NCBI GenBank assembly: GCA_021779695.1
Contig: JAJYAE010000017.1
Span: 1-27,651, forward strand
DNA from: Acidobacteriota bacterium
GTDB lineage: Bacteria > Acidobacteriota > Terriglobia > Terriglobales > Acidobacteriaceae
Direction: 5' to 3'
DNA length: 27,651 nt
A program made the position numbers and the translations under genes. Of the stretch, positions 1 through 21,859 are shown piece by piece. Under the pieces are notes generated by a model that did no database searches, had not been told where the DNA came from, and was given only the letters and a program-made list of their open reading frames with translations. Each line of letters begins with the position of its first letter. Position 1 is the first letter of the stretch.

Positions 1-265
1 GAAGCGTTGTTTTCCCAGAATTGTATGGCCCGACAATAGCGATGATCGCCGGATTACTGCGGCCAGCAACGAATGAAAGGGCCTCGATGCCGAATGCATT
101 CCCCGACCAAGGCAGCACAGAATTAGGCTCTTGCGGTTGTTTGGGATCAGACTCGGCCTGATGCGATCTCTTGGTGGCAGCACGCCAATTGGGACAATTC
201 TGCAGGTCCTCTCCTAAATCACACCCAATTTCAGGACGACAGTTCGGATCAGCGCAGACACTCAT
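1..265 (-). CDS. P-loop NTPase with Cys-rich N-terminus, likely double-GTPase-type conflict protein (partial, runs off the left edge)
   Basis: The first 88 codons of a larger gene are visible. Its ATG (265-263) overlaps the TGA of the upstream 432-aa gene (264-262) as ATGA, so the two are translationally coupled. Residues 4, 9, 15 and 24 are cysteines (CADPNC, then GC and NCPNW), which looks like a small metal-binding knuckle. A polar linker follows, then a hydrophobic strand and a perfect Walker A loop, GPYNSGKTT, at residues 79-87. The Walker B and any nucleotide-specificity motif lie outside the window, so GTPase rather than ATPase is inferred. The Cys-rich N-terminus followed by a P-loop, next to an all-helical partner, resembles what I recall of the double-GTPase (DO-GTPase2-like) components of GTPase-associated conflict systems. 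A dynamin-like or AAA NTPase is the alternative. Confidence 0.7.
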   Translation of the reverse strand, partial: MSVCADPNCRPEIGCDLGEDLQNCPNWRAATKRSHQAESDPKQPQEPNSVLPWSGNAFGIEALSFVAGRSNPAIIAIVGPYNSGKTTL

Positions 266-1560
266 TTCACATCTCCATCCTGTCCAGAGCCAAGTAATCT
301 CAATGCTTGGATCTCCCGATACAGATGCAGGCATATTTCCGCGTCGGTGAGCGTCAATGATGGAGACAGTCCTGTTCGCGTCAGGAGACTGTTCAGATCT
401 GCTTTCCCCGTCGTGAACTTCTTGATGAAATCGAGGAGCATCGGTCGGCCTGCGGAACCCTCAATGTCTTCAGGTAGTTGTGCCAGAAGCGCGGAGATTT
501 GCGGTTCTTTTTTGAGGTGATCGAGATAGTCTCCAAGATTTGCTTTCGCCGGTTTTCCCTTTCCGGATGCCCCGCCCCACTGCGCCGAGAACGCTTCCGC
601 GAGGAAATATTCGACTGCAATGGGATTCCACGTTGGTAGCAATGTGGCGAAGTCTAGGGCGAAAGCCAAAGGGAGGAGGACTGACTTCGTCCCACGATAA
701 CTCTGCTGCAGGTGCTCCGAAAAGGCCGATTCTTTCCACCAGAGAAGATCGGCTTGCCTCTTTAGCGTGGTGATCGGTGCAATCACGCCCGTCAAAGTCG
801 CAGTCATGGAATCAACGAGATCTTTGAGTCCCTTTTGCAGGGGATCGATCAGATTCTTTTTCAGATCGTCTGAGGAAATACCGCCGGCCTTTACCGCTGC
901 TTCTACTGTGCTGGCTATCGCCTCAACACCTTGATTTGTGATCATCTCCAGCAATTGCTGGTCATGCGTCATCCAGTTCTGATTATTCCAAGGTGGCCGT
1001 GGAAAACCAGCCTTTAAGACATCGCGGCTTACCGTTATGGAACCGCTGTTCAACGGGCCCAGCTTAATGGCTGGAAGCTTCGGAGAAACAACATTTGCAC
1101 CGCTTGGCCAGTGCCGTTCTGCCTCTTCTTGGGAGATTTTCCGAACGCGATCACGAAACGAGGTCAAAATCTCCGTCTCGCCTCCGGATTGAATATGCGG
1201 GAGAATATTCCTCGTGATCAAATCCACGGAGCCTGCAACATCAGGCTCCTCTTCCGAGAGATGGGACAAGGCATCGAGGATAATCGCACGGAATACAGTA
1301 CGCGGCTCAGTGAAGATTTCGGTGTAAGTATTCCATTGTTTCTGGACGGCGGATGCGACTGTCTCAAACGCAGGATCGTTGATCGGGGTTTCTGGGTCCA
1401 GCGCTGCGCGTGTATAGGGTATGGCAAGGAAGAGATCACTTCCTATCGCCTGTACAACGTCGGTGACCGCCGCTCGTAGCTTCTGTAAGAGTCCATCATC
1501 CGCAGATTTAATGGTGAAGATTCGCCTCTCGAGAAACAAGAGTAGATAGTCTTTGTCCAT
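262..1560 (-). CDS. All-helical protein, candidate GTPase-associated system helical (GASH-like) component
   Basis: This is a 432-aa soluble protein with no signal peptide or obvious enzyme motif. The start is supported by AAGGGG about 11 nt upstream of the ATG. Predicted secondary structure is almost entirely helical. The most distinctive segment is a tryptophan pair in LLWWKESAFSEHLQQSYRG (about 272-290), followed by a hydrophobic stretch (293-322) that includes LLPTWNPIAVEYFLAEAF. A helical protein with a WW motif that immediately precedes and overlaps a P-loop NTPase gene matches my memory of GASH proteins in predicted GTPase-centred conflict systems. I cannot run a profile to confirm this. 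The segment is less GC-rich than the core genes (31 of 60 bases in both 301-360 and 841-900). If the family call is wrong, it should be treated as a hypothetical partner of the NTPase. Confidence 0.65.
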   Translation of the reverse strand: MDKDYLLLFLERRIFTIKSADDGLLQKLRAAVTDVVQAIGSDLFLAIPYTRAALDPETPINDPAFETVASAVQKQWNTYTEIFTEPRTVFRAIILDALSHLSEEEPDVAGSVDLITRNILPHIQSGGETEILTSFRDRVRKISQEEAERHWPSGANVVSPKLPAIKLGPLNSGSITVSRDVLKAGFPRPPWNNQNWMTHDQQLLEMITNQGVEAIASTVEAAVKAGGISSDDLKKNLIDPLQKGLKDLVDSMTATLTGVIAPITTLKRQADLLWWKESAFSEHLQQSYRGTKSVLLPLAFALDFATLLPTWNPIAVEYFLAEAFSAQWGGASGKGKPAKANLGDYLDHLKKEPQISALLAQLPEDIEGSAGRPMLLDFIKKFTTGKADLNSLLTRTGLSPSLTLTDAEICLHLYREIQALRLLGSGQDGDVK

Positions 1561-1762
1561 CGTCGACTGGCCCCTTCACAATGAGAACTGATCTCCATCA
1601 TAACGGCGGGGCTAAAGTGGTGCTGCACGCGGTGGAGACACTTACTGCGACTCAATCAATTACTCGGGCCAATACTCTGGTTGCAGATCCCGAGCGGGAC
1701 TAAATTTAGACGCCACACTGCCAGCAGCAACCAACAGCCATCAGAACAGCCACCAAACGATT

Positions 1763-1789
1763 TTGGCCTCTCCGGTTTCGAGAGGCCAA
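1763..1789 (-). terminator. Hairpin downstream of tRNA-Leu
   Basis: A 10-bp perfect stem (TTGGCCTCTC at 1763-1772 with GAGAGGCCAA at 1780-1789) has a 7-nt loop and lies about 25 nt past the tRNA-Leu 3' end on the minus strand. No clean U-tract follows, so it is terminator-like, not a textbook intrinsic terminator. It also marks the boundary between the tRNA and the accessory two-gene unit. Confidence 0.5.
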
Positions 1790-1813
1790 TTCAATCTAAA
1801 CTCTTGATTTTGT

Positions 1814-1901
1814 TGGTGCCGGGAGGGGGGGTCGAACCCCCATGACCGCAAGGGTCGGCGGATTTTGAGTCCGCTGCGTCTGCCAGTTCCGCCATCCCGG
1901 C
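1814..1901 (-). tRNA. tRNA-Leu (anticodon CAA)
   Basis: The acceptor stem pairs GCCGGGA (from 1901) with TCCCGGC. The anticodon stem GCGGA/TCCGC encloses loop CTCAAAA, giving anticodon CAA, which reads UUG. The variable arm is long, as expected for a class II leucine tRNA. The T arm has GGTTCGACCCC, and CCA is encoded at the 3' end (1816-1814). The 3' end points toward the accessory NTPase system. Confidence 0.96.
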
Positions 1902-2104
1902 TGGTTGGGAGGAACAACTTCAACTAGTGTAATCGACCGTGAGTCCTTTTGGAGTGGATTCACGCATCAGATCCAGAAGAACGATGGAATGGCGCGGTTC
2001 GTCACCTCTGGATCCGATTTTTGCGTTGGGCATCCAACGGTTGACCGTATGGCACGCCCTCGTGGGGTCCCCGCATTATCTTCAGTGCATGTTGCGAAGG
2101 AACA

Positions 2105-2137
2105 GAAAAGGCCCGCAAAAATATTGCGGGCCTTTTC
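2105..2137 (-). terminator. Strong intrinsic terminator of the GH3 gene
   Basis: A 14-bp perfect stem has a 5-nt loop. The arms are GAAAAGGCCCGCAA (2105-2118) and its complement (2124-2137), so an A-rich strand and a U-rich strand flank a GC core. It starts 19 nt beyond the GH3 stop codon. Its symmetry means it could also stop transcription from the other side. Confidence 0.85.
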
Positions 2138-2155
2138 AAGGTTGGCGCACCCAAA

Positions 2156-4825
2156 TTATTCAGGGAGCGTTGTTGTCCCTGCCACGGTAAAGTTACCGGT
2201 CACGGTGGGTGCGCCGGTGTTCGGCTGGCCACCGCCGACAAAAACGGTGTACTGGCCCTCCGCAACAATCGGCTCGCCTGCCTCATTGACCATGCTCAGG
2301 TCGCGCGGTTTGAGGTAGAAACTCACCTTTTTCGACGCACCGGGTTCAAGATGCACGCGATGGAAGGCTCGGAGCGCACGCAGCGGAGCACCGGGTGTGC
2401 TGGGGAAGCTGAGATAGAGCTGCGCAACTTCATCGCCTGCACGGCTGCCTGTGTTGGTCACTGTGACCTCGGCCGTCATCGCGTCGCCAGCATGCACAGG
2501 TGCCGAAGGCAGCGTGAGGCCGCTATATGCGAACTTGGTGTAGCTCAATCCATAGCCGAAAGGATAGAGCGGCGTACCGGTGAAGTACCTGTAGGTGCGG
2601 CTCTTCATCGAGTAATCTTCAAACGGCGGTAGCTGATCCACCCCTTTATAGAAGGTGACGGGCAGTCGGCCAGCAGGGTTATTCCAGCCAGAGAGCGTTT
2701 GGGCAACTGCCATCCCTCCCTCTTCGCCGGGATACCACGCTTCGAGGATCGCATTGGCGTGTTCGGCCGCCCAGTTGACGGCGAGCGCGCTGCCATTGGT
2801 GAGCACCACAACAAGCGGCTTGCCTGTTGCAGAGAGAGCCTTCAGTAAGTCCTGTTCCGGCTGAGGAAGGTCGATGCTGGTGCGGTCGCCGCCGACAAAT
2901 CCAGGTACGTTGACCTTCATCTCTTCGCCTTCCAGCTCACTGGTGATACCAACCACTGCGACCACGACATCAGCATTCTTGGCAGCGTCAATCGCCTCAG
3001 GCTGCGGGGTCAAGTCCACCTTGCTCCAGACGAGCCGTGCAACAACGGGCTCATTCTCGGTCATCTGACCGTATTCCACGGCGAGGGGATAGGCCTTGCC
3101 CTTCTCCATGTGAACCAGGCCTAGCTTCGTGCTTACCTGGCCGGCGTGAAAGTCCTGCGTCACTTCCTTCCCGTCCAACATGACGCGGAAATAGCCGACG
3201 GCTTCCATGCCAAGGTTGTAGTCGGCGGTCTCTGACGCGGTGAGCGTACCTTCCCAGCGAATGCCAATAGGGCTCTTACCAGCAACTTCATCGGGCAGGG
3301 ACTGTGAGGTGGCGTTTACGCCCGACTCAACGCGGGTTGCCAGCACGGGGGGCTTCGCGGCCCCCTCGCTGAGGCTGATTCCCGTGTTCTGAACGTACGT
3401 GGCCTTCAGTCCAGGCTTGTTATCAAACTTCACGGCGCTTGCGGGAACCGGGTCCGCCTTCTTGCTCAGGAACTGCGTGCCTTCCGCATAGGTGATCGTG
3501 TCGTTGGCAAACTCTTCCTGCAAGCCGTCATAGATCGAGACGATGTGGTTGGGAATGCCCGTATAGTTGCCGAGCAGGAATCGTGTCTGCTTTGCCAGCG
3601 GGCCGATGAGGGCAATCTTGATACCGCGGGTCTTGAGCGGCAGGGTGCCGTCGTTCTTCAACAGCACCATCGACTCGTTAGCCAGGTGCAGCGCCAGTGC
3701 CTTGTGGCCTGCGCTGTTGAGCGCGTCCGGATTGATGTGGTTGTAAGGCACCATGGCCGGCGGGTCGAAGAGCCCGAGCTTGATGCGTGCAGTGAAGAGC
3801 CGAGTAACGGCCGTGTCAATCTCGCTCTCTTTCAGGTAGCCCTGTTTGACGGCATCCAGATAGGGCTTGTAGTCGTGGTCGTCCTTCACCTTGGCAAAGA
3901 AGTCGGCGCACTCGTTATCCATGCCGCGCTGCAGGCTTATGGCCGAGGCCTGCGCCTGCGTGGGCTTGTAGTGGTGGCCGCTAAAGATGTCGATTACAGC
4001 GCCGCAGTCCGAAACAACGTAGCCCTGGAAGCCCCACTTGCCGCGAAGCTGATCCTGGAGCAGGAACTGGTTGGCGCAAGCCGGTTCGCCGTTGATGCTG
4101 TTGTAAGCACACATCACAGAGCCAGCTTTGCCCTCAGTCACCGCTGCGCGGAACGCCGGCTCATAGGTGTCCAACTCGTCGTGTTTACTTACATCTACGT
4201 TGGCTTTGTGGCGTGTTGGCTCAGGGCCACTATGCACATCGAAGTGCTTCGGAGTGGCGATGACACGGTAGTAGCGCGGATCGTCTCCTTGCATGCCGGT
4301 GACGAAAGCCACGCCCATGCGGCCTGTGAGGAATGGGTCTTCGCCGTAGGTCTCCTGGCCGCGGCCCCAGCGAGGATCGCGAAAGATATTCAGATTCGGC
4401 GCCCAGAAGTCGAGGCCCTGGAATATGTTGCTGTGGCCTTGAGCGCTCATGGCCTGCATGTATTTGATGCGGCCCTCTGTGCTGATATCGACGCCCATGT
4501 GATGAATGGAGGCTGGATCAAATGTGGCGCCCAGACCAATCGGCTCAGGGAATTCGGTCGTGCCATCGACAGCCACTCCGTGCAGCGCCTCGCTCCACCA
4601 GTCATAGGACGGAACATGGAGACGTGGAATAGCGCGAGCCTGGTTGACGAGTTGGCTGGCCTTCTCTTCGAGTGTCATCCGGTGAACCAAATCGGCCGCA
4701 CGCTGCTCTGCCGGCAGATTTGGGTCAAGGTAAGCGGGCCGTGCCGCATCCTGCGCGTGGGTTGCCCACGCCAATCCAAGGCAGGCCACTCCTGCTGCAA
4801 TCCATCTCAATCCCAGGCTCTTCAT
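2156..4825 (-). CDS. Secreted glycoside hydrolase family 3 beta-glycosidase with inserted PA14 domain
   Basis: This 889-aa enzyme probably releases glucose or xylose from the non-reducing ends of plant polysaccharide oligomers. An ATG at 4825 is chosen because AAAGGGG lies just upstream and it begins a good signal peptide (MKSLGLRW, hydrophobic core, cleavage near ATHA/Q at about residue 24). A longer frame to 4924 would bury that signal. The N-terminal (alpha/beta)8 domain contains the KHF and VVSDCGAV motifs, and D273 is the expected nucleophile. The second alpha/beta domain includes ESMVLLKND and is split by a PA14-like insertion at about 471-603. An Fn3-like domain occupies about 785-865. 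The SDC form of the nucleophile motif is common in the xylosidase/glucosidase branch, but substrate cannot be fixed from sequence. The gene has its own promoter and terminator. Confidence 0.93.
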   Translation of the reverse strand: MKSLGLRWIAAGVACLGLAWATHAQDAARPAYLDPNLPAEQRAADLVHRMTLEEKASQLVNQARAIPRLHVPSYDWWSEALHGVAVDGTTEFPEPIGLGATFDPASIHHMGVDISTEGRIKYMQAMSAQGHSNIFQGLDFWAPNLNIFRDPRWGRGQETYGEDPFLTGRMGVAFVTGMQGDDPRYYRVIATPKHFDVHSGPEPTRHKANVDVSKHDELDTYEPAFRAAVTEGKAGSVMCAYNSINGEPACANQFLLQDQLRGKWGFQGYVVSDCGAVIDIFSGHHYKPTQAQASAISLQRGMDNECADFFAKVKDDHDYKPYLDAVKQGYLKESEIDTAVTRLFTARIKLGLFDPPAMVPYNHINPDALNSAGHKALALHLANESMVLLKNDGTLPLKTRGIKIALIGPLAKQTRFLLGNYTGIPNHIVSIYDGLQEEFANDTITYAEGTQFLSKKADPVPASAVKFDNKPGLKATYVQNTGISLSEGAAKPPVLATRVESGVNATSQSLPDEVAGKSPIGIRWEGTLTASETADYNLGMEAVGYFRVMLDGKEVTQDFHAGQVSTKLGLVHMEKGKAYPLAVEYGQMTENEPVVARLVWSKVDLTPQPEAIDAAKNADVVVAVVGITSELEGEEMKVNVPGFVGGDRTSIDLPQPEQDLLKALSATGKPLVVVLTNGSALAVNWAAEHANAILEAWYPGEEGGMAVAQTLSGWNNPAGRLPVTFYKGVDQLPPFEDYSMKSRTYRYFTGTPLYPFGYGLSYTKFAYSGLTLPSAPVHAGDAMTAEVTVTNTGSRAGDEVAQLYLSFPSTPGAPLRALRAFHRVHLEPGASKKVSFYLKPRDLSMVNEAGEPIVAEGQYTVFVGGGQPNTGAPTVTGNFTVAGTTTLPE

Positions 4826-4877
4826 CGCAACCCCTTTTTCGGTCAGGCAGATTGGTTCCCGCAGAATTTCATCACGA

Positions 4878-4889
4878 GAAAACGTTCGC
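4878..4889 (-). promoter_or_regulatory. Candidate LacI-type operator upstream of GH3
   Basis: GAAAACGTTCGC is an imperfect palindrome around a central CG, the usual architecture of LacI/GalR-family operators (4 of 5 flanking positions are symmetric). It sits just downstream of the proposed GH3 -10 element, a position suited to repression. A LacI-family regulator is encoded at 13941-15011, but a link between the two is only inference. Confidence 0.3.
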
Positions 4890-4904
4890 TTGTCCCGCTT
4901 GCCA

Positions 4905-4934
4905 AAGCTAAAAGCGCAGAGCAACTTGTGTCAA
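4905..4934 (-). promoter_or_regulatory. Candidate sigma-70 promoter for the GH3 gene
   Basis: On the minus strand a perfect TTGACA (4934-4929) is followed after 18 nt by a weak TAGCTT (4910-4905). This gives a leader of about 70 nt before the GH3 ATG at 4825. The -35 is convincing; the -10 is poor, which suits a regulated promoter. Confidence 0.4.
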
Positions 4935-5006
4935 GGCTGGCGCGCTTGGAAAGGCAGGGAAAAATCGCTTTAGGTGTGAAACGGGGCCGGAGAGCGGCGA
5001 ATTAGA

Positions 5007-9590: not shown

Positions 9591-10664
9591 ATGGATGCAG
9601 GAACCGTGGCCGTTACGTTGGAAGACAAACCGCAAATCTCGATCGACGCATCGAAGGAAGCCGCAGCCAAGGCCAAAGATGCCAAGCCAGCCGTGGAGCG
9701 CAAACGCGCGCGCAGCCTGACCGAGGACAAGCGCTTCAAGCTGTTCTCAGGCACGGCAAACCGGGCGCTGGCTGACGAGATTGCGACGCATATCGGCGTG
9801 AAGGTGGGCGAGGCCAAGCTGCAGCGCTTTGCCGACGGAGAGGTGTACTTCCAACTGCTGGAAAACGTGCGCGGCGTCGATGTCTTCGTCGTGCAGCCAA
9901 CCTGCTATCCCGTGGATCAGCACCTCGTGGAGTTGCTGGTGATGATTGACGCGCTGAAGCGGGCTTCGGCGGCGCGAATCACGGTGGTGGTTCCTTATTA
10001 CGGCTATGCGCGCCAGGACCGCAAAGACCGGCCCCGCGTGGCCATCAGCGCCAAGCTGATTGCCGACCTGCTGACAACGGCGGGGGCGAATCGCGCATTG
10101 TTTGTGGACCTGCACGCGGCGCAGATTCAGGGCTTCTTCAATATCCCCGTGGATCATCTGTTTGCGAGCCCGGTGCTGGTGAGCTACTTCCGCGATCTGA
10201 ACCTGCCGAATCTGACGGTGGTTTCTCCCGATGCGGGCGGCGTGGAGCGGGCGCGGTTTTTCGCGCAAAAGATGGGCGCGCCGCTGGCGATTGTGGACAA
10301 GCGGCGAACGGACATCAATGTGGCGGAAGTGATGAATGTGGTGGGCGATGTGAAGGGTCAGACCTGCCTCATCATCGACGACATTATTGATACGGCAGGC
10401 ACGCTGGTGAAGACCGTGGACGCACTCTATGCGAATGGAGCGGCCGCAGTCTATGCGTGCGCCAGTCACGCGGTGCTCTCCGGGCCCGCGATTGATCGCA
10501 TTGCCAGTTCGCGGCTCGAGCAGTTGGTGGTGACCAACACAATTCCGCTGCGCGAAGCGGCGCAGAAGCTGCCGAAGATTAAGGTGCTTTCGATTGCCGG
10601 CCTGCTGGGTGCGGCCATTGAGAGCATTCACATGGAGACCAGCGTGAGCACGCTGTTCAGCTGA
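9591..10664 (+). CDS. prs: Ribose-phosphate pyrophosphokinase (PRPP synthetase)
   Basis: Prs makes PRPP from ribose 5-phosphate and ATP for nucleotide, histidine and tryptophan synthesis. Family motifs are intact: RFADGEVYFQLLENVRG, VVPYYGYARQDRK, DLHAAQIQGFF, VVSPDAGGVERARFFA, and the PRPP-binding loop LIIDDIIDTAGTL. The homologous core begins at about residue 47 (KRFKLFSGTANRALADEIA), so the 357-aa protein carries a lysine/alanine-rich N-terminal extension of about 45 residues beyond the usual length of about 315. The ATG is supported by GGAGG 10-11 nt upstream. The gene follows tRNA-Gln directly. An internal start closer to the core cannot be excluded, but the extension is in a coding-like register. 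Confidence 0.96.
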   Translation: MDAGTVAVTLEDKPQISIDASKEAAAKAKDAKPAVERKRARSLTEDKRFKLFSGTANRALADEIATHIGVKVGEAKLQRFADGEVYFQLLENVRGVDVFVVQPTCYPVDQHLVELLVMIDALKRASAARITVVVPYYGYARQDRKDRPRVAISAKLIADLLTTAGANRALFVDLHAAQIQGFFNIPVDHLFASPVLVSYFRDLNLPNLTVVSPDAGGVERARFFAQKMGAPLAIVDKRRTDINVAEVMNVVGDVKGQTCLIIDDIIDTAGTLVKTVDALYANGAAAVYACASHAVLSGPAIDRIASSRLEQLVVTNTIPLREAAQKLPKIKVLSIAGLLGAAIESIHMETSVSTLFS

Positions 10665-10755
10665 TGGACAACCCCGGCGGGCCTGCATGGACGCCGCGAA
10701 CAAAGGGAGCGGCCTTCGAGTCCGTGCCCGACATTGAGAAACGAGAATAAGCACA

Positions 10756-11442
10756 ATGCCTGAAGTTGTCGTAGCGAAAGCCCGTGAGGGCAAGTTCAAC
10801 AAGAATGCTGCGCGCCGCGTGCGTGCCGCTGGCAAGATTCCCGCCGTGCTGTATGGCGCAGGGTATGAACCGGTCGCCGTTGAGTTGGACCCGAAGCAGA
10901 TCTCCCGAATTCTTTACTCCGAGAGCGGACATAACACGATTTTTGACGTGGAAGTGGCGGGCCATCCCACGGCCAAGGCTATGATCGTCGACTGGCAGTA
11001 TGAGCCGATCAAGGACCAGCTGATCCACATCGACCTGAAGCGGATCGCGCTGGATAAGCCTCTGCGCGTGAGCGTGCGCGTGAAGCTGCTGGGTATCCCG
11101 GTGGGCGTGAAGACCTTTGGCGGCATCCTGGATCAGGTGCTGCGTGAGGTTGAGATTGAATGCCTGCCAGCGGATATCCCGAGTCACATTGACGTGGACA
11201 TCAGCGAACTGGGCCTTCACCAGGTGCTGCGCGTCAATGAGCTACCTCACTCGGGCAAGATCAAGTTCCTGACGGCCGAGGACGCCGCCGTGGCACACGT
11301 TGTTTCGATCCGCGAAGAAGCGGCCCCGACAGCGGAAGGTGAAGCGGCGGCAGGTGCTACACCGGCTGAGCCGGAAGTGGCCAAGAAGGGCAAGGCAGAG
11401 CCTGCGGCGGATGCCGCCAAGAAGCCCGAGGCAAAGAAGTAA
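10756..11442 (+). CDS. rplY: 50S ribosomal protein L25 (general stress protein Ctc type)
   Basis: This 228-aa protein has the two-domain L25/TL5/Ctc layout: an N-terminal 5S rRNA-binding barrel (KNAARRVRAAGKIPAVLYG, then HIDLKRI near residue 92) and a C-terminal Ctc domain (about 98-190). The Ala/Glu/Lys-rich tail from about 190 is low in complexity. It lies 91 nt after prs with no terminator between, and 3 nt before pth, so prs-rplY-pth probably form one transcript. Confidence 0.95.
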   Translation: MPEVVVAKAREGKFNKNAARRVRAAGKIPAVLYGAGYEPVAVELDPKQISRILYSESGHNTIFDVEVAGHPTAKAMIVDWQYEPIKDQLIHIDLKRIALDKPLRVSVRVKLLGIPVGVKTFGGILDQVLREVEIECLPADIPSHIDVDISELGLHQVLRVNELPHSGKIKFLTAEDAAVAHVVSIREEAAPTAEGEAAAGATPAEPEVAKKGKAEPAADAAKKPEAKK

Positions 11443-11445
11443 GCC

Positions 11446-12096
11446 TTGGCCGAGGCAAGTGAGTCTCCCGGCAGCCGCAGCCCCTTCCTGGTGGTGGGGC
11501 TCGGCAATCCGGGTCTCGAGTATCTGTGGACGCCGCATAACGCGGGGTTCATGGCCATCGACCGCATCGCCCAGCAAGAGGGCGTTGTGGTCCAGAACCG
11601 GCGCTGCCGAGCCACCACTGCGACCTGCCGGATTGCGGGGCGTGAGGTGATCCTGGCCAAGCCGGAGACATACATGAATCTGAGCGGCGCATCAGTGGCC
11701 GCACTGATTCGGGAGTTTGAAGCCGACCCGGCGAAAGACCTGCTGGTCATCTATGACGAGCTGGATCTTCCACTGGGGAGCTTCAAGATCAGGGAACGCG
11801 GTTCGCCTGCCGGCCATAACGGAGCCCGCAGCGTAACCGGAGCGCTGGACAGCCAGGAGTGGCTGCGCTTGCGGATTGGGGTTGGCCTCGACCTGCCACC
11901 GGAGGTCAAAGCGGCAGGCGGAGGACGGCTCGGCAAGGATTACTTGCTGACCCCGATGCGCAAGGCGGAATTGGCAGTGCTCGACGAGGTGCTGGACCGG
12001 GTGTCCACGGCCACTCGACGCATCATCTCGGATGGTCCGTCACCTGCGATGAATGAGTTCAACCGCCGAGAGCGAAACGGCACGGCGGAGGAGTAA
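11446..12096 (+). CDS. pth: Peptidyl-tRNA hydrolase
   Basis: Pth frees tRNA from peptidyl-tRNA that drops off ribosomes. Catalytic and binding residues are present in the 216-aa product: N21 (GLGNPG), H31 (TPHNAGF), N78 (TYMNLSG), D104 (YDELDLP) and N125 (SPAGHNGARSV). The start is TTG at 11446, only 3 nt after the rplY stop. It gives a 12-residue N-terminal tail before the conserved FLVVGLGNPG strand. Reinitiation after rplY translation probably drives expression. Confidence 0.95.
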   Translation: MAEASESPGSRSPFLVVGLGNPGLEYLWTPHNAGFMAIDRIAQQEGVVVQNRRCRATTATCRIAGREVILAKPETYMNLSGASVAALIREFEADPAKDLLVIYDELDLPLGSFKIRERGSPAGHNGARSVTGALDSQEWLRLRIGVGLDLPPEVKAAGGGRLGKDYLLTPMRKAELAVLDEVLDRVSTATRRIISDGPSPAMNEFNRRERNGTAEE

Positions 12097-18398: not shown

Positions 18399-19871
18399 AT
18401 GCGCATGAGTCCAGGCCACCCTCTCGAAGTGGATGCACTTTTCGGTGACTACCCGCTGGATCAAGCCTATGACGAGATGCGTGAGCAATCCGGTGCGATG
18501 CGTTCCACATACCGGACGCTGGCAGAGGCGCTCTCCCGTCTCCCGCGGGAGGAGTTGCAACGACGCAAGCAGTCCGCAGAGCTCTCCTTCCTGACGCAGG
18601 GCATCACGTTTACCGTCTATGGTCGGGAAGAAGGCACCGAGCGCATCTTTCCTTACGACCTGCTTCCGCGTCTGGTGACGGCACAAGAATGGAGCCGAAT
18701 CGAACGCGGGCTGACACAGCGCATCATCGCACTCAACTTGTTTCTCCGCGATGTCTACTCCGAGGGAAAGATTCTGAACGATCGCGTCGTGCCACGCGAA
18801 CTGGTTTATAGCTGCAAGCATTTCCGCCGCCAGATGCGCGGCTTACAGGTGCCGCGGAATGTGTACATCGCGGTGGTTGGCACGGATCTGCTGCGTGTTC
18901 GTAGCGGCGAGTTTGTTGTCCTCGAGGACAATCTGCGCGTGCCATCGGGCGTAAGCTACATGCTGGCCAACCGGCGCGTAATGAAGCGTACTTTCCCACA
19001 GCTTTTCCAAAGTTACGGCGTGAGGCCGATCGAACACTATCCTCAACTTCTTCTCGCGACGCTCCGCTCTCTGGCGCCCGAGGGCAGACCGGAGCCGAAT
19101 ATCGTTTTGCTCACGCCGGGGGTATTCAATTCCGCCTACTATGAGCACACCTATCTGGCGCGGCAAATGGGCATCGACCTTGTAGAAGGCCGCGATCTTG
19201 TGACGCACGACAACATTGTGTATATGCGCACTACCGATGGCTTGAAGCGCGTCGACGTCATCTATCGCCGCGTGGATGACGACTTCAGCGATCCTCTGGT
19301 TTTTCGCGGGGACTCCGCGCTGGGCTGTGCAGGCCTATTCAATGCGTATCGCGCCGGCAACGTAACAGTGACAAACGCATTTGGAACCGGACTGGCGGAT
19401 GACAAGGCGCTCTACGCCTATGTGCCCCGCATCATCCGCTATTATCTCGGCGAAGATGCCGTCTTGCCCAACGTTGAGACCTACCTGTTGACCGAGGAGA
19501 AGGAGCGCAGGCATGTTCTGGCCAATCTCGACAAGCTCGTCGTGAAAGCGGTTGGTGAGAGCGGTGGGTATGGCATGCTGATTGGTCCTCACTCGACGGC
19601 ACGGCAGCGCGAAGAGTTTGCGCAGCAGATTGAGGCCAACCCCAGAAACTACATTGCACAGCCTACCCTCGACTTCTCGCGCGCGCCGTGCTTGATCGGT
19701 GATCGGCTCGAGCCTCGTCATGTTGATCTGCGGCCCTACATTCTTTTCGGCGATAAGGTCAACATCGTGCCTGGCGGCTTGACGCGCGTTGCCCTTGAAA
19801 AGGGCTCGCTCGTGGTGAACTCGTCGCAGGGTGGTGGCAGCAAAGACACGTGGGTGCTGGAGTCCAGGTGA
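18399..19871 (+). CDS. Circularly permuted ATP-grasp family protein (amidoligase-like)
   Basis: The 490-aa product matches the circularly permuted ATP-grasp family (former DUF404/DUF407), thought to form peptide-like bonds using ATP. Characteristic stretches are [59 protein letters not shown] and [17 protein letters not shown]. The near-C-terminal [11 protein letters not shown] and [14 protein letters not shown] are also typical. No good RBS precedes the ATG at 18399; a second ATG two codons on is equally possible. It is the first gene of a three-gene operon with alpha-E and transglutaminase-like proteins, a recurrent set predicted (Iyer and Aravind amidoligase work) to make or modify a small peptide. 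The product is unknown. Confidence 0.92.
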
Positions 19872-19897
19872 GCATGACAGTCCGGGAGAGTCGAACG

Positions 19898-20860
19898 ATG
19901 TTATCGCGAGTGGCAGACAGTCTCTACTGGATGAGCCGCTATCTCGAGCGGGCAGAAAACACTGCGCGGCAGCTCGATGTCACGATGAGCCTGATGCTTG
20001 ACACGGCAGGCGCAAGCGCCGAGTCTCGATGGAGGCGGTTAGTGGCTGCGCTTGGCGATTCACTGGGCCTGGACTGGAATGGCGACCTTGACGCAATGGC
20101 CCACTCCCTGGTGTTCGACAATCTCAACACCGCTTCGGTGACCTACACCGTGAACGCTGCACGTGAAAACGCGCGGCAGGTGCGCGAAGAAATTTCTACA
20201 GAGCAATGGCAACGGCTGAATCGCCTGTATCACCAGATTCATTCGCCACATGCACTTTCGCAGTCCAGCTCCAATATGGCGGACGTACTGACAAGTGTCG
20301 TCGATGGTATCCACCTCTTCAAAGGCGTGACTGATACAACGATGATTCACGGGCAAGGATGGCACTTTATCCGGCTGGGCCGCTACCTGGAGCGCGCGTA
20401 CGCAACGGCTACACTGCTTGAGGTATTTCAGTCCGATCTCTTACAAGCTCCGGAACGCGACGATACTGGCTATCAGTACCTGGAGCAGGTTGGCCTTTTG
20501 CGCTGCTGTACGGCCTTTGAGGCCTACTGTCAGGTGTACACCGCAGATCTTTCGCCGGATCGTATTCTTGAGTTCCTTCTTCTCAATCGCGATTTTCCGC
20601 ACGCGATTCGCTACTCAGTGGAAGGAATCCGACAGGCTGTGACGGCAATTCAACGCACCGGGGCACGACGGCCTCCGGACGACTTGGCCGCGGGCATTGG
20701 ACGCCTGCACGCCATGCTCGATTTCACTTCGATCGCAGAAATACTCGCTGGAGATTCCGCGCGATTTCTGCACACCATCCGCGCGCAATGTCTTCGCATT
20801 CACGAGCTCGTTTACAGCTACTATGTCCACTATTCGATCCAGTCGGCTCTGGCTGTCTAA
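19898..20860 (+). CDS. Alpha-E domain protein
   Basis: This all-helical protein of about 320 aa has the family's N-terminal signature MLSRVADSLYWMSRYLERAENTARQLDV split over its first helix. I start at ATG 19898 because it matches that conserved beginning and has GGGAGA 8 nt upstream. ATG 19874, 2 nt after the ATP-grasp stop, would add eight residues and is also credible. Other family-typical pieces are HFIRLGRYLERAYATATLL (about 157-175) and the C-terminal IHELVYSYYVHYS. Alpha-E proteins almost always accompany circularly permuted ATP-grasp proteins and are presumed to be their partner. No catalytic motif is visible. Confidence 0.92.
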   Translation: MLSRVADSLYWMSRYLERAENTARQLDVTMSLMLDTAGASAESRWRRLVAALGDSLGLDWNGDLDAMAHSLVFDNLNTASVTYTVNAARENARQVREEISTEQWQRLNRLYHQIHSPHALSQSSSNMADVLTSVVDGIHLFKGVTDTTMIHGQGWHFIRLGRYLERAYATATLLEVFQSDLLQAPERDDTGYQYLEQVGLLRCCTAFEAYCQVYTADLSPDRILEFLLLNRDFPHAIRYSVEGIRQAVTAIQRTGARRPPDDLAAGIGRLHAMLDFTSIAEILAGDSARFLHTIRAQCLRIHELVYSYYVHYSIQSALAV

Positions 20861-20872
20861 CGGAGACACACG

Positions 20873-21859
20873 ATGCAGTTCTATTCCATACGTCACCTGA
20901 CACGCTTTCGCTACTCTGAGCCCATCCGCGAAAGTATCATGGAAACACGCATGCATCCGCGTTCCGACGCGAACCAGCACTGCCTGTCATTCACGCTCTC
21001 GGTGAGCCCGCGCTGTCGGGTCTTCAGCTATCGCGATCACCTTGGCAACAACGTGCAGCACTTTGACATTCCCGGAGAACACACACAACTCGTCATCGTG
21101 GCGGAGAGCGTAATAGAGCAGCAGCCGATTCCCATGCTTCCCAGCTTTCTGGCGCCTGACGCATGGGCAGAACTGGACGCTCTGATCGAGGAAGGCGACT
21201 ATTGGGAGATGCTCCTACCCAGTACGTTCGCCGTGGAGACACCCGCGCTCGTTGAACTGGCTTGCAAGCTCGACGTGGCGCGCCGCGATGACCCCCTTAT
21301 GCTGGTGCATGAGTTGAATCAGCGGCTCTTTGAATACTTTGAATACGTCCCACGCTCTACGCGCGTCGACTCGCCAATTGACGATGCGATCTTGAGCGGC
21401 AAAGGTGTCTGCCAGGACTTTGCCCACACTATGCTTGCGTTGCTGCGACATGTGCGAATTCCGGCTCGCTATGTTTCCGGCTATCTGTATCGCAGCCGCG
21501 AGGCGCATGATCGCAGTGCGCCCGATGCAACCCATGCGTGGGTGGATGTTCTGCTGCCGCAGTTGGGCTGGGTGGGCTTTGATCCCACGAACAACCTCAT
21601 TGCGCATCGGCGGCACATTCGCACGGCTGTGGGGCGCGATTACGCAGACGTGCCACCCACGCACGGCGTTTTCCGCGGCAGTGCGGAGAGTGAACTGTAC
21701 GTGGCTGTGCATGTGGAAGCCAATGAACAACCGCCCGCGCTGGACCGCAAGCTGCCGATTCCAGATGACTGGAGTGTATTGGTGGAGCGCGCGCAGCAAC
21801 CTGCCGCTGCTCGCACGCCCATGATGGATTTACAACACATGCAGCAGCAACAGCAATGA
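20873..21859 (+). CDS. Transglutaminase-like cysteine peptidase of the ATP-grasp/alpha-E cassette
   Basis: The 328-aa protein has the bacterial transglutaminase-like N-terminal beta domain (YSIRHLTRFRYSEPIRES, METRMHPR). The papain-like core follows with the complete triad: C180 in GVCQDFAH, H221 in ATHAWVDV and D237 in GFDPTN. No signal peptide is seen, so it is probably cytoplasmic and may hydrolyse or ligate the peptide made by the ATP-grasp partner. It begins 12 nt after alpha-E with GGAG upstream. The C-terminus is a short glutamine run (HMQQQQQ). Its stop is only 12 nt from the convergent araB stop, and I see no terminator between them. Confidence 0.93.
   Translation: MQFYSIRHLTRFRYSEPIRESIMETRMHPRSDANQHCLSFTLSVSPRCRVFSYRDHLGNNVQHFDIPGEHTQLVIVAESVIEQQPIPMLPSFLAPDAWAELDALIEEGDYWEMLLPSTFAVETPALVELACKLDVARRDDPLMLVHELNQRLFEYFEYVPRSTRVDSPIDDAILSGKGVCQDFAHTMLALLRHVRIPARYVSGYLYRSREAHDRSAPDATHAWVDVLLPQLGWVGFDPTNNLIAHRRHIRTAVGRDYADVPPTHGVFRGSAESELYVAVHVEANEQPPALDRKLPIPDDWSVLVERAQQPAAARTPMMDLQHMQQQQQ

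What the first reader, a model, noticed from the sequence alone, without database searches (positions are those of the whole stretch)
1..1560. Candidate GTPase-centred conflict system at the left edge
Seen: a 432-aa helical protein with an LLWWKES motif overlaps by ATGA a gene that begins with four cysteines and a Walker A loop (GPYNSGKTT). Known: predicted GTPase-associated conflict systems pair a helical GASH protein with double-GTPase and further effector genes. Inference: this is such a system, with its GTPase body and effectors left of the window. Few have been tested, so it is the best lead for an undescribed defence or programmed-death system here.
Basis: partly seen in the sequence, partly recalled or inferred. 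Interest (0 to 1): 0.75.

Follow-up and report, generated by a model that had tools for sequence, protein, structure and literature searches.

The report
GASH–double-GTPase conflict system, left edge
The left edge of this bacterial DNA holds the first gene and the start of the second gene of a predicted, apparently untested bacterial immune or self-killing system in which a GTP-driven switch is thought to release a killer enzyme; it is a new, distant member of a kind already described from sequence in 2020.

Summary
The 432-aa protein (262-1560, minus) is a GASH domain (PF19994, E 7.4e-45). The gene it overlaps by ATGA is the N-terminus of a zinc-ribbon DO-GTPase2: the 88 residues in the window carry four cysteines and a P-loop, match a DO-GTPase2 profile at 73.8 bits, and are 60-67% identical over their whole length to four full-length relatives with PF19993. 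In all 19 other GASH loci that I examined, GASH is followed by DO-GTPase2, DO-GTPase1 and GAP1; 18 have a recognisable effector. This is the GAP1-N1 GTPase-centric conflict system predicted by Kaur et al. 2020 (eLife 9:e52696). The window's GASH falls in a well-separated clade with an Acidobacteriota member. The pair lies on the 3' side of a tRNA-Leu with lowered GC, compatible with a mobile island. DO-GTPase1, GAP1 and effector would lie left of the window and could not be reached. I found no experiment on such a system in the library searched. Verdict: new member of a known, untested kind; moderate interest.

The parts
262..1560 (-). GASH gene (GTPase-associated system helical protein), 432 aa, first gene of the predicted operon
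   Evidence: PF19994 E 7.4e-45, 154.3 bits vs cut-off 27; 12 other homologues at 28-77% identity, all with PF19994
2..265 (-). 5' part of a DO-GTPase2 gene (88 codons in the window, runs off the left edge): cysteines 4, 9, 15, 24 (zinc ribbon inferred), then P-loop GPYNSGKTT
   Evidence: DO-GTPase2 profile 73.8 bits; 60-67% identity over 100% of the fragment to P0113, P0116, P0130, P0132, each with PF19993
262..265 (-). ATGA stop/start overlap between GASH and DO-GTPase2 (translational coupling inferred)
   Evidence: of 11 relatives' junctions printed there, 3 are also -4 (L001, L004, L005), 3 overlap by other lengths (L002, L013, L018) and 5 have gaps of 2-56 bases as annotated or listed (L003, L014, L015, L016, L017)
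1561..1813 (.). intergenic region upstream of the GASH gene; no sigma-70-type promoter match
   Evidence: 0 found in 1-2400; 1.3 expected from shuffles
1814..1901 (-). tRNA-Leu (CAA), 3' end facing the GASH gene; possible island insertion site (inference)
   Evidence: ARAGORN, Rfam; GC falls left of it

Best explanation
Positions 1-1560 are the promoter-proximal end of a GAP1-N1-type GTPase-centric conflict system: an operon GASH > DO-GTPase2 (with zinc ribbon) > DO-GTPase1 > GAP1 > effector, read leftwards off the window. Most likely working: the helical GASH protein and GAP1 bind a pair of Ras/MglA/Rag-like GTPases that act as a two-subunit switch. An invader signal changes the nucleotide state of the pair; GAP1 is thereby exposed or assembled and recruits an enzyme through a small adaptor (EAD1 on both proteins, or GAAD), or carries the enzyme fused. 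The enzyme, in the relatives most often a caspase-type protease, else a phosphorylase-superfamily protein, a calcineurin-type phosphoesterase or a trypsin with a nuclease, then damages the cell's own proteins, nucleotides or DNA, so that the cell dies or stops before a phage or plasmid can spread. Shown here: the two window genes and their families, the gene order and effector types in relatives, a GTPase-fold model of the nearest named full-length relative. Inferred: the genes left of the window, the switch, the role of GASH, the trigger and the outcome. The confidence below is for the identity of the system; for the switch-and-kill mechanism as worded I would give about 0.5.
Against: GAP1, DO-GTPase1 and effector are not seen for this locus. 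The GAP1 search gave 111 proteins, none listed with a longest contig equal to that of any GASH relative, so a GAP1 of this clade was not shown; that search needs shared 5-residue words, scored only the best 7,996 candidates and names one contig length per cluster, so it may have missed it. If EAD1 pairing were specific to each locus, GAP1's EAD1 should resemble its own effector's EAD1 most; it did so in 0 of the 15 loci with two EAD1 hits (mean normalised score 0.23 within, 0.21 between). The GASH model found no PDB relative, so its role has no structural support. The zinc-ribbon part of the P0116 model has pLDDT mostly under 50. No experiment on phage defence was found.
Confidence: 0.85

Rival explanations
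1. A remnant or a housekeeping switch: GASH and DO-GTPase2 persist without GAP1 or effector in this clade, or serve cell signalling (an MglA/Rag-like GTPase pair with a helical partner) rather than conflict.
For: No GAP1 of the window's clade was recognised among 111 GAP1 hits; the nearest PDB folds of the GTPase include MglA, a polarity switch (its role recalled).
Against: Both window reading frames are open as far as they go; the GASH protein is reported on 4 contigs and has full-length relatives, and so has DO-GTPase2; the four-gene core was present in 19 of 19 relatives examined; the low GC3 suggests arrival by transfer rather than housekeeping.
Confidence: 0.1
2. The system is maintenance cargo of a mobile element inserted at tRNA-Leu, protecting the element against rival elements or loss rather than the cell against phages.
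For: The tRNA-Leu 3' end faces the pair; GC 52-53% left of it against 56-64% in the windows to the right; GC3 of GASH 0.550 against a mean of 0.686 (sd 0.043, lowest 0.607) in 20 other genes; relatives on plasmids and a phage record.
Against: No integrase was recognised among the main window genes and no convincing repeat of the tRNA end in 1-5000; mobile carriage is equally usual for defence systems, so the two readings overlap.
Confidence: 0.15

Closest known systems
GAP1-N1-type GTPase-centric conflict systems (Kaur, Burroughs, Iyer, Aravind 2020, eLife 9:e52696, PMC7159879; abstract, passages and sections 27-28 read)
   Same: GASH protein followed by a DO-GTPase with N-terminal cysteines; the relatives show the second DO-GTPase, GAP1-N1 and EAD1- or GAAD-coupled effectors as described there
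   Different: The window's GASH is only 22-28% identical to those of L001-L005 and lies on a long stem (support 100/100, 1.79 changes per column) with an Acidobacteriota member; 'acidobacteri' does not occur in that paper's main text (its supplementary phyletic tables were not seen). Only the first gene and part of the second are visible here.
[quoted passage not shown]
   Same: DO-GTPase core
   Different: Per the paper they carry FNIII-repeat proteins instead of GASH; here GASH is present
Caspase-nuclease (canu) antiphage system (PMC12799240; abstract and passages seen)
   Same: A caspase-family protease in the system, as in 11 of the 19 relatives
   Different: GTPase and GASH occur 0 times in that paper's main text; different partner genes
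MglA and Rag/Gtr small GTPases (solved structures 3t1o, 4arz)
   Same: Predicted fold of the DO-GTPase2 relative P0116
   Different: 9-16% identity in those alignments; N-terminal cysteine-rich part; different gene neighbourhood

Membership tests
GAP1-N1-type GTPase-centric system | GASH-domain protein | tested here: met
   PF19994 154.3 bits vs cut-off 27
GAP1-N1-type GTPase-centric system | DO-GTPase with N-terminal zinc ribbon next to GASH | tested here: met
   On the N-terminal 88 residues only: four cysteines and P-loop; DO-GTPase2 profile 73.8 bits; 60-67% identity to four full-length PF19993 proteins. Pfam on the fragment alone is below cut-off; zinc binding itself not tested
GAP1-N1-type GTPase-centric system | Second paralogous DO-GTPase (DO-GTPase1) | not testable with these tools
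   Would lie left of the window; no genome held. Present in 19 of 19 relatives
GAP1-N1-type GTPase-centric system | GAP1 with GAP1-N1 domain | tested here: inconclusive
   Would lie left of the window; 111 GAP1 proteins found, none with a matching contig length. Present in 19 of 19 relatives (Pfam in 11, local profile in 8)
GAP1-N1-type GTPase-centric system | Variable effector, EAD1- or GAAD-coupled or fused to GAP1 | not testable with these tools
   Would lie left of the window; recognisable in 18 of 19 relatives
GAP1-N1-type GTPase-centric system | Mobile gene neighbourhood | tested here: inconclusive
   3' side of tRNA-Leu, GC and GC3 drop; no integrase recognised or att-like repeat found in the window part searched
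GAP1-N1-type GTPase-centric system | Action against invaders | not testable with these tools
   Predicted in the 2020 paper; no experiment found
TRAFAC GTPase (DO-GTPase2) | GTPase fold and motifs | tested here: met
   For the relative P0116: P-loop, D168xxG171, K242xD244; small-GTPase fold. For the window itself only the P-loop is visible

The most novel reading that the evidence does not exclude
The acidobacterial clade is a distinct branch of GASH systems: it keeps the GASH and GTPase switch but couples it to a GAP1 too divergent to be found by the search here, or to a different executor, carried on an island at tRNA-Leu.
Probability: 0.2. Interest if true: 0.55.

Novelty: new member of a known kind. 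Interest (0 to 1): 0.42.

Why it matters
GASH/DO-GTPase systems are predicted to join a G-protein switch to caspase-like killing in bacteria, a layout akin to the control of cell death in eukaryotes, yet I found no experimental work on them in the open-access library searched and no convincing relative of GASH or GAP1 among solved structures by sequence. This locus adds a divergent branch with an acidobacterial member, which helps to tell the constant residues (W274/W275 of LLWWK in 15 aligned GASH proteins; the four cysteines in 26 DO-GTPase2 proteins), and shows that such a system can be recognised from the first 1.5 kb of its operon.

Tried and rejected

Caveats on counts: the local profiles were built from L001-L005, so these five match by construction; their identity rests on Pfam where scanned (GAP1-N1 in 5 of 5; DO-GTPase2 in L001, L003, L004, L005; DO-GTPase1 in L001 and L003). 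For the plasmid loci, GASH rests on tblastn and the local profile, and caspase on the local profile or record annotation. For one search, 21 of the 120 listed proteins and five locus proteins were aligned; of 348 hits only 120 were listed, and the window's own full-length GTPase was not among them. The tree is rooted at the midpoint for drawing only.

Full report
What is there. On the minus strand, 262-1560 encodes a 432-residue protein with the LLWWKES motif, and its stop codon overlaps by ATGA the start of a second gene that runs off the left edge after 88 codons. The second protein begins with four cysteines (4, 9, 15, 24) and reaches a P-loop, GPYNSGKTT. Upstream are 253 bases and then a tRNA-Leu (CAA) on the same strand, 1814-1901. 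To the right of the tRNA lie ordinary chromosomal genes: a GH3 glycosidase, a GFO/IDH/MocA oxidoreductase, an aspartyl protease, a GHMP kinase, ribose-phosphate pyrophosphokinase, ribosomal L25, peptidyl-tRNA hydrolase, S6, L9 and others (20 ORFs scanned).

Identification. The 432-residue protein matches Pfam GASH (PF19994) over residues 19-422 at E 7.4e-45, well over the curated cut-off. A database search gave 13 proteins including the window's own; all 13 carry PF19994, and the 12 others are 28-77% identical. One, P0005, is named by its source as a GASH protein of Candidatus Angelobacter, a genus of Acidobacteriota. A maximum-likelihood tree of 25 GASH proteins puts the window's protein with eight others, P0005 among them, in a clade with support 100/100 and a stem of 1.79 changes per column. 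The second protein has only 15 residues of the PF19993 domain inside the window, so Pfam alone is weak (E 0.042); against a profile of five full-length DO-GTPase2 proteins it scores 73.8 bits. A profile search listed P0116, P0130, P0132 and P0113, 60-67% identical over the whole fragment, 323-325 residues long, each with PF19993. In two cases the GASH and the DO-GTPase2 relatives are reported from contigs of identical length (373,321 and 17,518 bases), which I take as linkage.

Neighbourhood in relatives. GASH loci came from genome contigs (5), plasmids (8), phages (1) and whole-genome searches (4 of 398 genomes and 3 of 296, each count including the centre genome that was known to have it, so 3 and 2 new; 0 of 14 control genomes in each). 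All 19 were examined. In each, GASH is followed directly by DO-GTPase2, DO-GTPase1 and GAP1. Effectors: a caspase-EAD1 protein in 11 (L001, L002, L004, L005, L013, L014, L016, L017, L019, L020, L021; Pfam for the first four, local profile or record annotation for the rest); a phosphorylase-superfamily protein in 4 (L015 upstream of GASH, L018, L022, and fused to GAP1 in L028); a calcineurin-type phosphoesterase with GAAD upstream of GASH in 2 (L023, L024); trypsin-EAD1 with an Endonuclease_NS gene in 1 (L003); undetermined in 1 (L029). Caspase, trypsin, phosphorylase and calcineurin domains, EAD1 and GAAD are all named for these systems by Kaur et al. (section 28).

Origin. GC falls from 56-64% in the 1-kb windows to the right to 52-53% at the left end, and GC3 of the GASH gene is 0.550 against a mean of 0.686 (sd 0.043, lowest 0.607) for 20 other genes of the window. 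With the tRNA 3' end facing the operon, an island inserted there is plausible. No integrase or convincing second attachment copy is visible, and of 12 relatives' loci scanned for tRNA genes two held one, neither next to the system, so this is inference. Low GC alone could also reflect a fast-evolving gene.

How it may work. The 2020 paper proposes that the GTPase-GAP1 pair sets a threshold and that EADs or GAAD recruit effectors. My evidence adds a G-domain fold for DO-GTPase2, invariant cysteines in 26 proteins and the constant gene order, which suit a fixed complex with a variable executor. Against a simple like-with-like code, GAP1's EAD1 was never most similar to its own effector's EAD1 (0 of 15 loci). 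The trigger, the role of GASH and the outcome remain inferences.

Novelty. Searches for GASH, DO-GTPase, GAP1-N1, EAD1 and combinations brought up the 2020 eLife paper as the work that describes these systems. Its 2021 sequel mentions systems with a core GTPase switch (PMC8195603, passages). PMC11237479 holds the term DO-GTPase once and PMC9599734 a word beginning with gash once (listings only; neither opened). I saw no experimental paper on them; most papers of subscription journals are not in the library. The window is therefore a new, divergent member of a known predicted kind.

Noticed in passing
L018 8989-15574: A complete GASH/DO-GTPase/GAP1/phosphorylase system sits beside an integrase gene on the record of Leptospira phage LkmZ_Bejolso9, so these systems can be phage- or prophage-borne.
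   Followed up: partly
L013 and L020: GAP1 is in two pieces: annotated as two CDS in the Enterobacter kobei plasmid L013, and lying in two frames in the Mesorhizobium loti plasmid L020, while the near-identical L016 has it in one frame.
   Followed up: no
P0169: A 1195-aa protein is listed with GAP1-N1, EAD1, PF00656 (caspase) and PF12770 (CHAT; name recalled): an effector joined directly to GAP1.
   Followed up: no
L003 16710-18670: Trypsin-EAD1 followed by a DNA/RNA non-specific endonuclease gene, a protease-nuclease pairing that recalls the proteolytically activated nucleases of PMC12799240, which are of another family.
   Followed up: partly
L028 198-2505: By eye, genes near this GASH locus (phylum of the Flavobacterium genome) look like pth, rplY and prs; in the window prs, L25 and peptidyl-tRNA hydrolase lie at 9591-12096, 8 kb from the GASH gene. 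Probably coincidence.
   Followed up: no
window 1763-1789: A perfect 10-base inverted repeat (TTGGCCTCTC...GAGAGGCCAA, seen by eye) lies between tRNA-Leu and the GASH gene, without a T run; perhaps a transcription terminator or processing signal.
   Followed up: no
window 18399-21859: Circularly permuted ATP-grasp, Alpha-E and transglutaminase genes in a row; from memory a recurrent, poorly understood cluster.
   Followed up: no
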